A stretch of DNA of 64,000 bases from Herpetosiphon aurantiacus DSM 785 (GTDB lineage Bacteria; Chloroflexota; Chloroflexia; Chloroflexales; Herpetosiphonaceae), in contig CP000875.1 in NCBI GenBank assembly GCA_000018565.1, positions 4,789,199-4,853,198 of the forward strand, in the 5' to 3' direction. The notes under the pieces are model-generated. The model had not been told where the DNA came from and searched no databases. It was given only the letters and a program-made list of their open reading frames with translations. The translations under genes and the position numbers were made by a program. Of this stretch, positions 46,006-50,116 are shown piece by piece (position 1 is the first letter of the stretch; each line of letters starts with the position of its first letter).

Positions 46006-46037
46006 AAAAACCCATGGGCTGAGGCTCAACCCATGGG
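46006..46037 (-). terminator. Rho-independent terminator of the toxin operon
   Basis: 13-pair stem CCCATGGGCTGAG / CTCAACCCATGGG with one G.U, followed on the minus strand by TTTTTAATG. It closes the leftward genes 47482-46066, and the YfhO start codon lies about 7 bases past it. Confidence 0.85.
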
Positions 46038-46065
46038 CAACGATCTGATGCTCAATTATACGCGA

Positions 46066-46458
46066 TTAGCTGGCTAGGCGCGGTGTTCGACGTTTGAACA
46101 ACCATGTCAAGCCAAGCAGCACGATCAGGGGAATGATAATCCACAAGCCAAATTGCCAGCGTTGTTCTTGCAATAAAGCTTGTTCAAATTGGTCGATTGC
46201 CTGACCGTTACTGGCACAAAAACCCGTGCCATCAGGCCGACAACGATCGATCAGATCAAAGCGTGAAAAGCTGCTAAAGCACCAATAACAACCAGCAAGG
46301 CTGGCAAGACCAAGGCTGGCAGCAATCACAATCGGCAATAGCTTGATCGTTGCATATGGGCTGGCCAACTGACCGATACTATAGCCCAAGCTCAAGCTAC
46401 TCAATAGAAAAAAGACCAATATACCGCTGATCATCAAGAGATCACTAAACCCTGCCAT
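46066..46458 (-). CDS. Small membrane protein, candidate immunity protein
   Basis: A 130-residue protein with three hydrophobic helices (about 5-28, 38-60, 105-122) and a soluble loop FDLIDRCRPDGTGFCASNGQAIDQFEQALLQEQR. No family is recognised. It lies 22 bases behind the WXG100 toxin gene in the same direction, has GGAG seven bases before its ATG, and ends at the shared terminator. Polymorphic toxins are normally followed by their immunity gene, so that is the best guess. It is inference from position only. Confidence 0.6.
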   Translation of the reverse strand: MAGFSDLLMISGILVFFLLSSLSLGYSIGQLASPYATIKLLPIVIAASLGLASLAGCYWCFSSFSRFDLIDRCRPDGTGFCASNGQAIDQFEQALLQEQRWQFGLWIIIPLIVLLGLTWLFKRRTPRLAS

Positions 46459-46480
46459 GTGCTAACTCCAGCCGGATCAA

Positions 46481-47482
46481 CTAGCGTTGATTTTTGCCTG
46501 ATGTCGTTTTATCGAGATTAACCAACTCGTCGCGATGTGCCAAAATTTCGGCATGCAATTGTTCAGGAGTCATCGAACTACCATATTTGTTCCAGAGATC
46601 AATCCCAATCTGCACAGTTAGCACATCGCCTGGGTCGTTCGTGCCGGTGAAGGCATCGCCAAGGTTGGCTCCATCTTGCAGGGTGCTGGTATCAAAGCCA
46701 GCGGCTGCCCCAACATAGCCATAGTGAATATTTGACCAAATATCGTAGTAGTATTCGTTGGTTTGGTCGCCACGAATCGGAAAGTAGAAATCGTTATCAG
46801 CATTGGTAGAGGGATCGCCATCAAGATCAAGCAGATCGTTTAATTTTGGCTTGTGATCCCAATCGCCGCCGCTATGGACTTTGGCTGCCCACATTGCTAA
46901 GGCCGCAATTAATTTATCACCGGGATTGCCGCCACCAAGATAGTCGTACCATTGGGGATTTCTAAATGAGTCGAGCAACGATTTGATCATGCCTACAGTT
47001 TCGCTTTGGGCATTGGTGATCATCTCTTGATGCATGTATTGCAAGGTTTGATCAAAGCGATCGTAGTTGTTAGGGTCGGCAGGTGGGGTTGGCGTTGGTG
47101 TTTCTTCGGCTGTAAATTGGGTAGTATTGCTATTAGGCTGTCCTCCAGCAGGTTTTGCTGCGGCATCGCCTTCGGTCAGCGGCCCTTGAAACAAGCGGGC
47201 GGCTTCTTCTTCGGCCTGGCGCATCAGGTTTTTGATTTGTAAGGTAACTGCTTGACTCTCGCGGAGGGCAGCGGTTAGGCGCCTAAAGGCCGGAAAAACA
47301 TTGCTTTGCATTTCATTGGCAAAGGCTTTGGCGGCATCGCCTTGCCATTGGCCGCCAACTAAAGCATCGTGCACTTGACGAATACTTTGGGTGATCGATT
47401 CACTTTGTTCGGCTTGGCGGTTGAAACGGCTGGCGATTTGCTCAAGCTGCTCAAATTGAGCTTGAACGATTTCGGCGGTCAT
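46481..47482 (-). CDS. WXG100 polymorphic toxin with toxin-44-like C-terminal domain
   Basis: A 333-residue protein. Residues 1-100 are a helical WXG100/ESX-like domain with W-x-G in GGQWQGDAAKAF (W46, G48), the export signal of type VII-like secretion. A Pro/Thr-rich link (about 101-140) follows. The C-terminal domain (about 165-320) has SGGDWDHK and NIHYGYVGAAAGFDTSTLQDGANLGD, close to the W-D-x-K and N-F-x-Y-G-A-x-G-x-A-x-G pattern of polymorphic toxin type 44, a predicted RNase family. AGGAGG precedes the ATG. The next gene downstream is a candidate immunity protein. Secreted toxin between competing cells is the likely role; a search would be needed to confirm the domain. Confidence 0.78.
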   Translation of the reverse strand: MTAEIVQAQFEQLEQIASRFNRQAEQSESITQSIRQVHDALVGGQWQGDAAKAFANEMQSNVFPAFRRLTAALRESQAVTLQIKNLMRQAEEEAARLFQGPLTEGDAAAKPAGGQPNSNTTQFTAEETPTPTPPADPNNYDRFDQTLQYMHQEMITNAQSETVGMIKSLLDSFRNPQWYDYLGGGNPGDKLIAALAMWAAKVHSGGDWDHKPKLNDLLDLDGDPSTNADNDFYFPIRGDQTNEYYYDIWSNIHYGYVGAAAGFDTSTLQDGANLGDAFTGTNDPGDVLTVQIGIDLWNKYGSSMTPEQLHAEILAHRDELVNLDKTTSGKNQR

Positions 47483-47725: not shown

Positions 47726-48907
47726 TCATCTTTGACAAACCGCCCAACCAATTTCAGGGCTAAGCTGTTGTTTGGCAGAATCGTAGTGTGTACCAATCAA
47801 GCCAGCCACACAGGCCAATGCTTGGTTTGAGCCATCAGGCAATTCGATTGTGATTGGTACGCGAGCTAAGCCACTAGGGAAGCGATGATTAGCAATGCCC
47901 TCACCAAGGCTTTTGCTTGGAGTTGCATCACTTTCGGCGGGTAGCTCAAATAAGTACTGAATCAGCCTTTCTTGATAGATTGCGGGGTTGTACGGCCAAT
48001 CAAGCTCGTGATCAAGTTCAGCATTTAATAGGCTTGAACGTGGTTGCTCAAACAGCGGATTGCGCAGCGTTGGCTGTTCTTTGGTATCTTTGATATAAGG
48101 AAAGAGGTCGGCAACCCAGCCCGTGACAACTTCGCCACCATACTGATCATAGGGTTTATAGAGTTGTTGCCAAAAACTGTGCGGCGGTCGGCCTTCGCTA
48201 GTCAAAATCAAGCCCTCGCAAATTGGGGCAATTCGCTCCGTCCACCAAGCCAAATCATACTCGGCCAAGCGTTCGACACGTTCGGCGATTGAGCGCCAAT
48301 CGGCAGGCGTGCCTAGCAGGGTGATATTTGGAATGCCACAAACGCAAACCGCCCCGTAATCAAAATAATGCTCAAACCTTTCCATCAACCCAATTTGGCT
48401 GGCGGTGCGGCTAATTGAGGTTGTGGTTGAAAAATCGCATTGCAAGGTTTGGGCAAGTTGGTCGGGTAATGCTTGATTGAGGAATGCTGCCCAAAGTTCG
48501 ATTGCTTGGGTCCATGCTGCTTGACTACTGAGATCATCAACCCGAATGGTGAGCTGCTTTTTAGCTTCATGGGCAACAAAACGCTGGCGCAAATGCTCAG
48601 CATGTCGGTTGACATGATTCGCAAAGCCCTGAGCGATCGTTAGCCAAAGACAATCGGGTGTGAGTACCAAGGGATAGTGCTGGCTAAAAGCAAGGTGGAT
48701 TGTTTGAATTAATGGATTATCAGTATTCGTTTTGACCAACAACTGAGCCGGATCATGGCTGGTTTGGATGAGCTGGCGTTTGATCCGAGTCGCAAATTGC
48801 GCCTGAGCAGCAACCAACTCAAACGAACTTTGATAAGGCTCAACTGCATCGACCACGAACTGAATTGAGCCATGGCTTTGGGCTAAAATTGGGGCAATTT
48901 CAGGCAT
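47726..48907 (-). CDS. DUF4419 protein
   Basis: A 393-residue soluble protein of the DUF4419 family. It has the family wording HYPLVLTPDCLWLTIAQGFANHVN and the CGIPNITLLGTPADWRSIAERVERLAEYDLAWW..RIAPICEGLI block, then WQQLYKPYDQYGGEVVTGWVADLFPYI. The function of this family, which is also found in fungi, is unknown. The ATG at 48907 has GGAGAAG upstream. A second copy with the same start (MPxIAPILAQSH) lies directly upstream, so this is a tandem duplication. Confidence 0.88.
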   Translation of the reverse strand: MPEIAPILAQSHGSIQFVVDAVEPYQSSFELVAAQAQFATRIKRQLIQTSHDPAQLLVKTNTDNPLIQTIHLAFSQHYPLVLTPDCLWLTIAQGFANHVNRHAEHLRQRFVAHEAKKQLTIRVDDLSSQAAWTQAIELWAAFLNQALPDQLAQTLQCDFSTTTSISRTASQIGLMERFEHYFDYGAVCVCGIPNITLLGTPADWRSIAERVERLAEYDLAWWTERIAPICEGLILTSEGRPPHSFWQQLYKPYDQYGGEVVTGWVADLFPYIKDTKEQPTLRNPLFEQPRSSLLNAELDHELDWPYNPAIYQERLIQYLFELPAESDATPSKSLGEGIANHRFPSGLARVPITIELPDGSNQALACVAGLIGTHYDSAKQQLSPEIGWAVCQR

Positions 48908-48971
48908 CTCAATACTTCTCCATTCAGTCAAATCGCACTTAACGATAAGCACCTAGCACAGCTAAATTTCA

Positions 48972-50116
48972 TTAATACACCGCCCAACCAATTTCAGGGC
49001 TAAGTTGATTGGTATCACGATTGTAGCCTGTGCCAATCAAGCCTGCGACTAGCCTAACCTTCGTTGCAGGTCCATCTATATGCTCGCGATAGGTTGTCGT
49101 CACTTTGGCTAAACCACTCGGAAAAATCCAAGGCGCAAGACCGCTTTCTCTGGACTCAGTTTCAAACTCCAACACCTCAGGATCAAATGGCTCTATTTCC
49201 GCCAAATTTACCAATGGTTCAGGTTGAGTTAGTTGGATTGATGGTGAGGCAAGCGGATCATCCAAAAGCTGGCGTTGGTGGGCAAGCATTGGGTTACGAC
49301 ATAACTGGCCAGGTTTACCAACTTTCTTGATATATGGAAACAAATCGATAATCCAGCCATCAATTTTGTCATCACAAAAACCACTGGTTTGATGATAGAT
49401 TTGTTGCCAGAACCTATGCGGCGGTTGACCTTCGATGGTTAAAATCAAGCCCTCGCAAATTGAAGCTAGCCGCTCCGTCCACCAGCCAAGATCAAAAGTT
49501 GCTAGCCATTTTACCCGTTCAGCGATTGAGTGCCAATCGGCAGGTGTGCCCAGCAACGTAATATTTGGAATGCCACAGATTGGCATAAAATCATAGTCAA
49601 AAAAGGCTTGAAAGCCCTCCATCAACACAATCTGGCTGGCGGTATGGGTGATTGAAGTTGTGGTTGAAAAGTCATTTTAACTAGGTTTTTAGGTAGAGCT
49701 TGCGCTAGTTGGTCGGCCCAAAACCCAATCGTATCAGCCCATGTGATCCCTTCATCAACCCGCAAGTTTTTTTTGCCTGTATGTTCAACTAAGCGTTGGC
49801 GTAATTGTTGATAGTGTTGATTTACGTGCGAACTAAAACCTTGGGCGATTGTCAGCCAAATGCAATCGGGGGTGAGCACCAGCGGATAATGTTGCCCATA
49901 GGCTAGCTCCAAACAACTCAATAATTGATGATCACTGCCCGTTCGGGCAAATAATTGAGTTTGGGTTTGCAGGGTTTTCAGTGGTGGCAGCCCTTGCCAA
50001 AGCGGCAATTCTTGGGGTTGCAAGCACACTGGCGAGCTTTGGCATGGCTCAACTGCATCGACTACAAACCGAATTGAGTCATGGCTTTGAGCTAAAATTG
50101 GGGCAATTGTAGGCAT
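48972..50116 (-). pseudogene. DUF4419 gene, second copy, frameshifted
   Basis: Paralog of the gene at 47726-48907. The 5' part (50116 to about 49680) reads MPTIAPILAQSHDSIRFVVDAVEP through YPLVLTPDCIWLTIAQGF. Near 49680 the frame is lost: the codons after V-K should continue D-F-S-T-T-T-S-I as in the intact copy, but a single missing base changes this to T-F-Q-P-Q and a stop follows. The 3' part (from about 49680 to 48972) is open and reads MEGFQAFFDYDFMPICGIPNITLLGTPADW. It is probably a pseudogene or a sequencing error; the rest is well conserved. Confidence 0.8.

What the first reader, a model, noticed from the sequence alone, without database searches (positions are those of the whole stretch)
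46066..47482. WXG100 toxin with type-44-like domain and an unrecognised immunity candidate
The gene pair joins an ESX-like N-terminus (W46-x-G48) to a C-terminal domain with the NIHYGYVGAAAG pattern, followed after 22 bases by an unfamiliar three-helix protein and a shared terminator. If the small protein is the immunity partner, membrane localisation would be unusual for neutralising a cytoplasmic RNase.
Basis: partly seen in the sequence, partly recalled or inferred. Interest (0 to 1): 0.75.

Follow-up and report, generated by a model that had tools for sequence, protein, structure and literature searches.

The report
Secreted toxin with membrane-bound immunity partner
A predatory soil bacterium carries a secreted antibacterial toxin next to a small membrane protein that very probably protects it, and a survey of relatives shows that this whole toxin family, labelled an RNase, is guarded almost everywhere by proteins facing the outside of the cell, so it may attack the cell envelope rather than RNA.

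Summary
Gene 46481-47482 (-) encodes a WXG100 type VII secretion domain joined to a Bacterial toxin 44 domain (PF15607, 60.7 bits, cut-off 24). The 130-residue protein 22 bases downstream matches no curated family. It is predicted to cross the membrane three times, with a cysteine-bearing loop outside. The pair is kept together in 5 of 6 sampled Herpetosiphon genomes and is jointly absent from the sixth. The genome encodes a type VII ATPase elsewhere.

The new result is family-wide. In the clearly readable Ntox44 loci, 24 of 27 downstream partners are membrane proteins or lipoproteins, against 15 of 51 control genes (p = 7e-7). None of ten EndoU/AHH nuclease-toxin partners is. Neutralisation therefore most likely happens on the outer face of the membrane. 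That fits an envelope-acting toxin such as TelC better than a cytoplasmic RNase. The predicted fold gives a weak lead to the Lipocone superfamily (serum amyloid A, Z 4.2), below significance.

Against this, enterobacterial Ntox44 partners match immunity protein TsiR, whose presumed effector TseR is reported as an RNase in a paper I could not read. The enzymatic target stays open.

The parts
46481..47482 (-). WXG100-Ntox44 toxin gene, 333 aa
   Evidence: orthologs in five Herpetosiphon genomes
47195..47467 (-). WXG100 domain, residues 6-96 (W46-x-G48): type VII export signal
   Evidence: PF06013 39 bits, TIGR03930 67.8 bits
47069..47194 (-). short Pro/Thr-rich linker, residues 97-138; no large central domain
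   Evidence: sequence; no family hit
46484..47068 (-). folded toxin domain, residues 139-333, mainly helical with a beta-hairpin
   Evidence: AlphaFold2 model pLDDT 89.4, pTM 0.88
46589..46891 (-). Pfam Ntox44 core, residues 198-298
   Evidence: PF15607 60.7 bits
46850..46861 (-). invariant WDHK (residues 208-211)
   Evidence: identical in 61 of 61 homologs; not part of the retrieval pattern
46709..46744 (-). DIWSNIHYGYVG motif (residues 247-258), candidate active-site helix; H253
   Evidence: residues 249-256 were the retrieval pattern, so their invariance is partly by construction
46604..46636 (-). D283-P-G-D286 to G293 motif; D286 and G293 invariant
46459..46480 (-). 22-base gap between toxin and partner
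46066..46458 (-). 130-aa three-TM partner, candidate immunity protein
46369..46440 (-). partner TM1 (about residues 7-30)
   Evidence: hydropathy
46273..46341 (-). partner TM2 (about residues 40-62), with C57 and C60
46153..46272 (-). partner loop 63-102, predicted outside, with C73 and C81 invariant in the genus
   Evidence: charge distribution; alignment
46096..46152 (-). partner TM3 (about residues 103-121), followed by cytoplasmic KRRTPR tail
46010..46038 (-). intrinsic terminator after the two-gene unit
   Evidence: 13-pair stem and TTTT

Best explanation
A two-gene polymorphic toxin unit. The toxin is exported by the cell's type VII system through its WXG100 domain. Its Ntox44 domain is an enzyme that works at the outer face of a neighbour's cytoplasmic membrane, most plausibly on a lipid-linked or wall precursor as TelC does. 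The 130-residue protein sits in the membrane of the producer and its kin and blocks the toxin there. Shown here: domain identity, gene linkage, co-occurrence, presence of a type VII ATPase, and the family-wide membrane or exported character of Ntox44 partners. Inferred: export, toxicity, immunity, orientation of the loop, and the substrate.
For: Domain hits. Pair conserved with fixed spacing in five Herpetosiphon genomes and both genes absent from G274. Type VII EssC/EccC-type ATPase and small WXG100 genes in the genome. Partner topology: 24 of 27 Ntox44 partners in loci below 60% GC are membrane or lipoprotein versus 15 of 51 control genes, p = 7e-7. The three exceptions (L072, L077, L084) look alike and carry an N-terminal hydrophobic stretch just under the cut-off, resembling the L095 partner. 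None of 10 EndoU/AHH toxin partners from Ntox44-bearing genomes has a TM. Partners are N-terminally anchored with a C-side domain of 93-192 aa, or are three-TM proteins. No soluble immunity candidate lies in the operon; the upstream DUF4419 gene is only a remnant in L003, where the toxin is intact. In TelC, which acts outside the cytoplasm, the LXG and toxin domains are joined directly, without the central domain of the cytoplasm-acting toxins (PMC5555719); the window toxin also has only a short linker. Coral Ntox44 homologs carry secretion signals (PMC8162421).
Against: The enterobacterial partner family is NCBIfam TsiR, and TseR is cited as a trans-kingdom RNase (PMC13141884; primary paper not held). 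PMC9635880 lists Ntox44 among characterised nuclease domains. Other WXG toxins of this genome also have lipoprotein-like partners, so an exported partner is not special to Ntox44 here. High-GC loci gave no clean readout. The lipid-target idea rests on a fold match below the noise level, with no profile support.
Confidence: 0.52

Rival explanations
1. The Ntox44 domain is an RNase acting in the cytoplasm, as annotated. The membrane partner traps the incoming toxin on the outside or at its entry route, before it reaches the cytoplasm, and the producer is safe because the toxin is inactive before export.
For: Zhang 2012 prediction; TseR reported as an RNase and its immunity family TsiR is the neighbour of enterobacterial Ntox44 genes. 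EsxX shows that separate immunity proteins can act on the two sides of the membrane (PMC12744356).
Against: No soluble immunity protein protects the producer's cytoplasm in these operons. EndoU and AHH nuclease toxins from the same genomes have partners without TM segments. Zhang 2012 lists no immunity protein for Ntox44, so the RNase label did not rest on partner evidence.
Confidence: 0.35
2. The domain is a member of the Lipocone superfamily that cleaves lipid head groups such as lipid II, like TelC (a specific form of the best explanation).
For: Model topology: helix, linker with helix and beta-hairpin, then three helices. Serum amyloid A1 aligns at Z 4.2, rmsd 3.9, 90 of 104 residues with the core model, and SAA3 and SAA1 at Z 3.0 and 2.7 with the longer model. 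An invariant His in the second core helix and Asp with Gly seven residues on in the fourth fall in the order described for Lipocones (PMC12419801). Lipocone toxins are also guarded only by TM proteins or lipoproteins.
Against: Z is below the noise level; ECF transporter S-components tie with SAA1. Foldseek found nothing significant. hhalign with SAA, VanZ and YfiM gave probability at or below about 1. No conserved acidic residue in the third helix. TelC did not appear.
Confidence: 0.3
3. The 130-residue protein is an unrelated neighbour or a secretion accessory, and immunity lies elsewhere.
For: No homolog outside Herpetosiphon was found in 82 genomes of the order, and no family is known.
Against: Constant spacing, joint presence and absence in the genus, and a membrane partner in the same position in most readable Ntox44 loci.
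Confidence: 0.08

Closest known systems
Ntox44 / Bacterial toxin 44 (PF15607), polymorphic toxin type 44
   Same: Domain score, DxK (WDHK), N-x-x-x-G (NIHYG), WXG delivery; chloroflexi already listed in Zhang 2012
   Different: The source lists no immunity protein and predicts an RNase; here a family-wide set of membrane-facing partners is described
TsiR (NCBIfam NF053805) with TseR of Enterobacterales
   Same: Gene next to Ntox44 T6SS effectors; N-terminal membrane anchor
   Different: The window partner does not match TsiR; it is a three-TM protein of another family
TelC-TipC of Streptococcus intermedius (lipid II phosphatase)
   Same: Type VII toxin joined directly to its export domain, immunity acting outside the cytoplasm (PMC5555719, PMC6193138)
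   Different: LXG rather than WXG100; no detectable sequence similarity of the toxin domains shown; TipC is not reported as a three-TM protein
Lipocone superfamily (PMC12419801)
   Same: Possible four-helix topology with a clasp; immunity proteins that are TM or lipoproteins
   Different: Membership of Ntox44 not established; Ntox44 is not named in that paper's main text
TspA-TsaI and EsxX-ExiCD of Staphylococcus aureus
   Same: Polytopic membrane immunity for type VII toxins acting at the membrane
   Different: Those toxins depolarise membranes; Ntox44 has invariant polar residues of an enzyme

Membership tests
Ntox44 (PF15607) | Score above the curated cut-off | tested here: met
   60.7 bits against 24; all 61 homologs also hit
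Ntox44 (PF15607) | Motifs DxK, GNxxxG, DxxxD (Zhang 2012) | tested here: inconclusive
   DHK present; SNIHYG has S in place of the first G; D283 and D286 give DxxD, not DxxxD
Ntox44 (PF15607) | RNase activity | not testable with these tools
   no assay; literature conflict stated
WXG100 / type VII substrate | WXG100 profile and W-x-G | tested here: met
WXG100 / type VII substrate | A type VII ATPase in the genome | tested here: met
   EssC/EccC-type protein, TIGR03928 1525 bits, TIGR03924 1010, TIGR03925 808
WXG100 / type VII substrate | Actual export | not testable with these tools
   needs secretion assay
Polymorphic toxin immunity gene | Immediately downstream and co-inherited | tested here: met
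   five genomes with both, one with neither
Polymorphic toxin immunity gene | Rescue and binding | not testable with these tools
   no assay or complex prediction available
TsiR (NF053805) | Score above cut-off 130 bits | tested here: not met
   no hit for the window partner at E<=1; met by the partners in L012, L070, L074, L083, L088
Three-TM CDxGxNxxAN partner family (defined here) | Profile similarity and motif between TM1 and TM2 | tested here: not met
   hhalign probability 6, window protein HMM E about 2, motif absent
Lipocone superfamily | Four-helix cone fold | tested here: inconclusive
   SAA1 Z 4.2, rmsd 3.9, 90/104; tied with ECF S-components
Lipocone superfamily | Active-site His (H2), acid (H3), Asp (H4) | tested here: inconclusive
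   H253 and D286 invariant in the expected order; no conserved acid in the third helix; residue-level superposition not available
Lipocone superfamily | Profile similarity to known families | tested here: inconclusive
   hhalign with SAA, YfiM, VanZ not significant, but two of the three profiles were single sequences
TelC (prok-TelC) | Sequence or structural match, lipid II cleavage | not testable with these tools
   no TelC sequence or coordinates at hand; no TelC-like PDB match by sequence

The most novel reading that the evidence does not exclude
The widespread Ntox44 toxin family, annotated as an RNase since 2012, is an envelope-acting enzyme, possibly a new Lipocone family that cleaves lipid-linked cell-wall precursors. 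It is guarded everywhere by unrecognised outward-facing immunity families, including the Herpetosiphon three-TM protein and a second three-TM family shared by Actinomycetota, Pseudomonadota and Chloroflexota.
Probability: 0.3. Interest if true: 0.75.

Novelty: new variant of a known kind. Interest (0 to 1): 0.5.

Why it matters
Ntox44 effectors occur in T6SS of enterobacteria including Klebsiella and Yersinia, in T7SS of actinomycetes and Chloroflexota, and even in corals, and are routinely labelled RNases. If their immunity proteins all work outside the cytoplasm, either the label is wrong or the toxin is stopped on its way in. Either answer is directly testable with one compartment-switching experiment.

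Tried and rejected
PDB sequence search with toxin and with the Ntox44 profile: nothing relevant. Foldseek against PDB and viral models: no significant match for either model. hhalign of the Ntox44 profile against prok-SAA, VanZ and YfiM: not significant; a 7-residue D-x-x-[SA]-N-x-H resemblance to SAA is noted as chance-level. DUF4056 (CapCone) not found in the 28 genomes tried, so no profile could be built. TelC not seen among matches, which excludes nothing. Codon-usage gene calling for small partners was too strict and was dropped for a plain ORF rule with matched controls. DUF4419 upstream as a soluble immunity gene: rejected, since only a remnant is left in L003 beside an intact toxin. 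Phages hold no relative of the domain. PADLOC: no hit. The primary TseR paper is not in the library. Weak L008 match (below cut-off, inside a shikimate kinase/dehydroquinate synthase frame) set aside.

Full report
What is there. On the minus strand, 46481-47482 encodes a 333-residue protein and 46066-46458 a 130-residue protein, 22 bases apart. A 13-pair terminator with TTTT lies at 46038-46010. Residues 6-96 are a WXG100 domain (PF06013 39 bits, TIGR03930 67.8 bits) and residues 198-298 are Ntox44 (PF15607, 60.7 bits against a cut-off of 24). The partner has no hit above cut-off. The window lies in a 6,785,430-base genome of three contigs. From contig sizes and named relatives I take it to be Herpetosiphon aurantiacus (inference). 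Herpetosiphon is a wolf-pack predator (PMC6210107).

The pair. Among six sampled genomes of the genus, five carry the toxin and the same five carry the partner; G274 has neither. In the loci read, the partner follows immediately at the same spacing. Toxin C-terminal regions are 78-79% identical to the window and partners 72-90%. No partner homolog was found in the rest of 82 genomes of the order. The DUF4419 gene upstream is not a likely immunity gene, since only a remnant of it is left in L003.

Export. The genome has an EssC/EccC-type ATPase of 2958 residues (TIGR03928 1525 bits, TIGR03924 1010 bits, TIGR03925 808 bits) with seven Walker A motifs, beside small WXG100 genes, about 1.5 Mb from the window. 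There are 19 further WXG100 hits, one of them below the family's cut-off. Export of this toxin is therefore plausible but not shown.

Partner topology in the window. The 130-residue protein has three hydrophobic segments (KD peaks 2.28, 1.93, 2.41). The C-terminal tail has four basic residues, and loop 63-102 has two cysteines invariant in the genus and more acidic than basic residues. The positive-inside rule then puts that loop outside. This is a prediction.

The family-wide test. I collected 80 Ntox44 loci from bacterial genomes. They were retrieved with the pattern [WY]SN[IV]HYG[YF], so the invariance of that stretch is partly by construction; W208-D209-H210-K211, D247, G258, D286 and G293 are invariant outside the pattern. 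For each locus I took the longest same-strand ORF of at least 80 residues starting -60 to +200 from the toxin stop, and applied the same rule to other long genes of the same loci. In loci below 60% GC the partner is a membrane protein or lipoprotein in 24 of 27 cases against 15 of 51 control genes (Fisher p = 7e-7). The three exceptions are Pseudomonas proteins (L072, L077, L084) with an N-terminal hydrophobic stretch just under the cut-off, resembling the L095 partner, which passes. High-GC loci are noisy because spurious ORFs win. The loci are not fully independent, so the p value is optimistic. As a toxin control, EndoU and AHH nuclease toxins from genomes that carry Ntox44 have a readable partner in 10 loci, none with a TM segment.

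Kinds of partner. One kind is a three-TM family with CD[VI]G[VI]NxxAN between TM1 and TM2, in Actinomycetota, Pseudomonadota and Chloroflexota. The other is a set of single-anchor proteins and lipoproteins with a 93-192 residue C-side domain. Five enterobacterial loci (L012, L070, L074, L083, L088) have NCBIfam TsiR; the other partners tested have no curated family. The Herpetosiphon protein belongs to neither the CDxGxN family nor TsiR.

What the toxin may do. Zhang et al. 2012 place Ntox44 among predicted metal-independent RNases, all-alpha, with no immunity protein listed (PMC3482391). Later papers repeat the RNase label. A toxin that degrades RNA in the cytoplasm should need immunity there before export, as the control toxins suggest; no such gene lies in these operons. 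TelC, a lipid II phosphatase exported by a type VII system, is harmless in the cytoplasm, and its LXG and toxin domains are joined directly without the large central domain of the cytoplasm-acting toxins (PMC5555719). The window toxin likewise has only a short linker. Coral Ntox44 homologs carry a secretion signal (PMC8162421).

Fold. The AlphaFold2 model of residues 139-333 is confident (pLDDT 89.4, pTM 0.88). No solved structure matches significantly. In the second look, serum amyloid A appears with both models: SAA3 Z 3.0 and SAA1 Z 2.7 with the longer model, SAA1 Z 4.2, rmsd 3.9, 90 of 104 residues with the core. ECF S-components tie with it, and the tool warns that Z below 8-13 can be noise for helical folds. 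SAA belongs to the Lipocone superfamily with TelC, and that paper finds only TM or lipoprotein immunity for Lipocone toxins (PMC12419801). The order of the helices, the beta-hairpin before the second core helix, the invariant His and the Asp with Gly seven residues on agree with that description; the acidic residue of the third helix is missing. Profile comparison gave nothing. I hold this as a lead at about 0.3.

The conflict. PMC13141884 cites TseR of Yersinia pseudotuberculosis as a trans-kingdom RNase (Wang et al. 2025). A 2018 review lists a Yersinia pseudotuberculosis T6SS2 effector as Ntox44 (PMC6079546). Since TsiR is the neighbour of enterobacterial Ntox44 genes, TseR is presumably an Ntox44 protein, though I could not confirm this. 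The primary paper is not held. If the RNase activity is real and physiological, membrane partners must intercept the toxin before entry. I therefore keep the RNase rival at 0.35.

Verdict. The pair belongs to a known kind of system, polymorphic toxins, but with an unrecognised immunity family and an unexpected compartment for neutralisation, which is why I call it a new variant. The family-wide partner pattern is the part a specialist would want to follow.

Noticed in passing
L126:7357-16233 (genome C1 about 3307356-3316232): EssC/EccC-type ATPase of 2958 residues with seven Walker A motifs in tandem; from memory the usual number is three. Probable core of this genome's type VII system.
   Followed up: partly
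window 47726-50116 (-): Tandem DUF4419 genes: an intact copy (47726-48952) and a second copy split into two ORFs in different frames (49622-50116 and 48972-49628). Only a remnant in L003.
   Followed up: partly
L105, L110, L111, L112: Other WXG100 fusion toxins of the genome are followed by lipoprotein-like small proteins, so extracytoplasmic immunity may be common in Herpetosiphon.
   Followed up: partly
L012, L070, L074, L083, L088: NCBIfam immunity protein TsiR is the downstream neighbour of enterobacterial Ntox44 T6SS effectors.
   Followed up: yes
L006 (G088) and L015: Ntox44 reading frames that look broken (an in-frame TGA in L006; separate frames in L015).
   Followed up: no
L150: An Oscillatoriales genome that carries Ntox44 also has an RHS-type protein ending in a serum amyloid A-like domain (PF00277, 60 bits), as described for Lipocone toxins.
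   Followed up: no
L009 and L010: Streptomyces and Kitasatospora Ntox44 toxins on plasmids are preceded by a small gene of about 110 residues, possibly a WXG-like partner.
   Followed up: no
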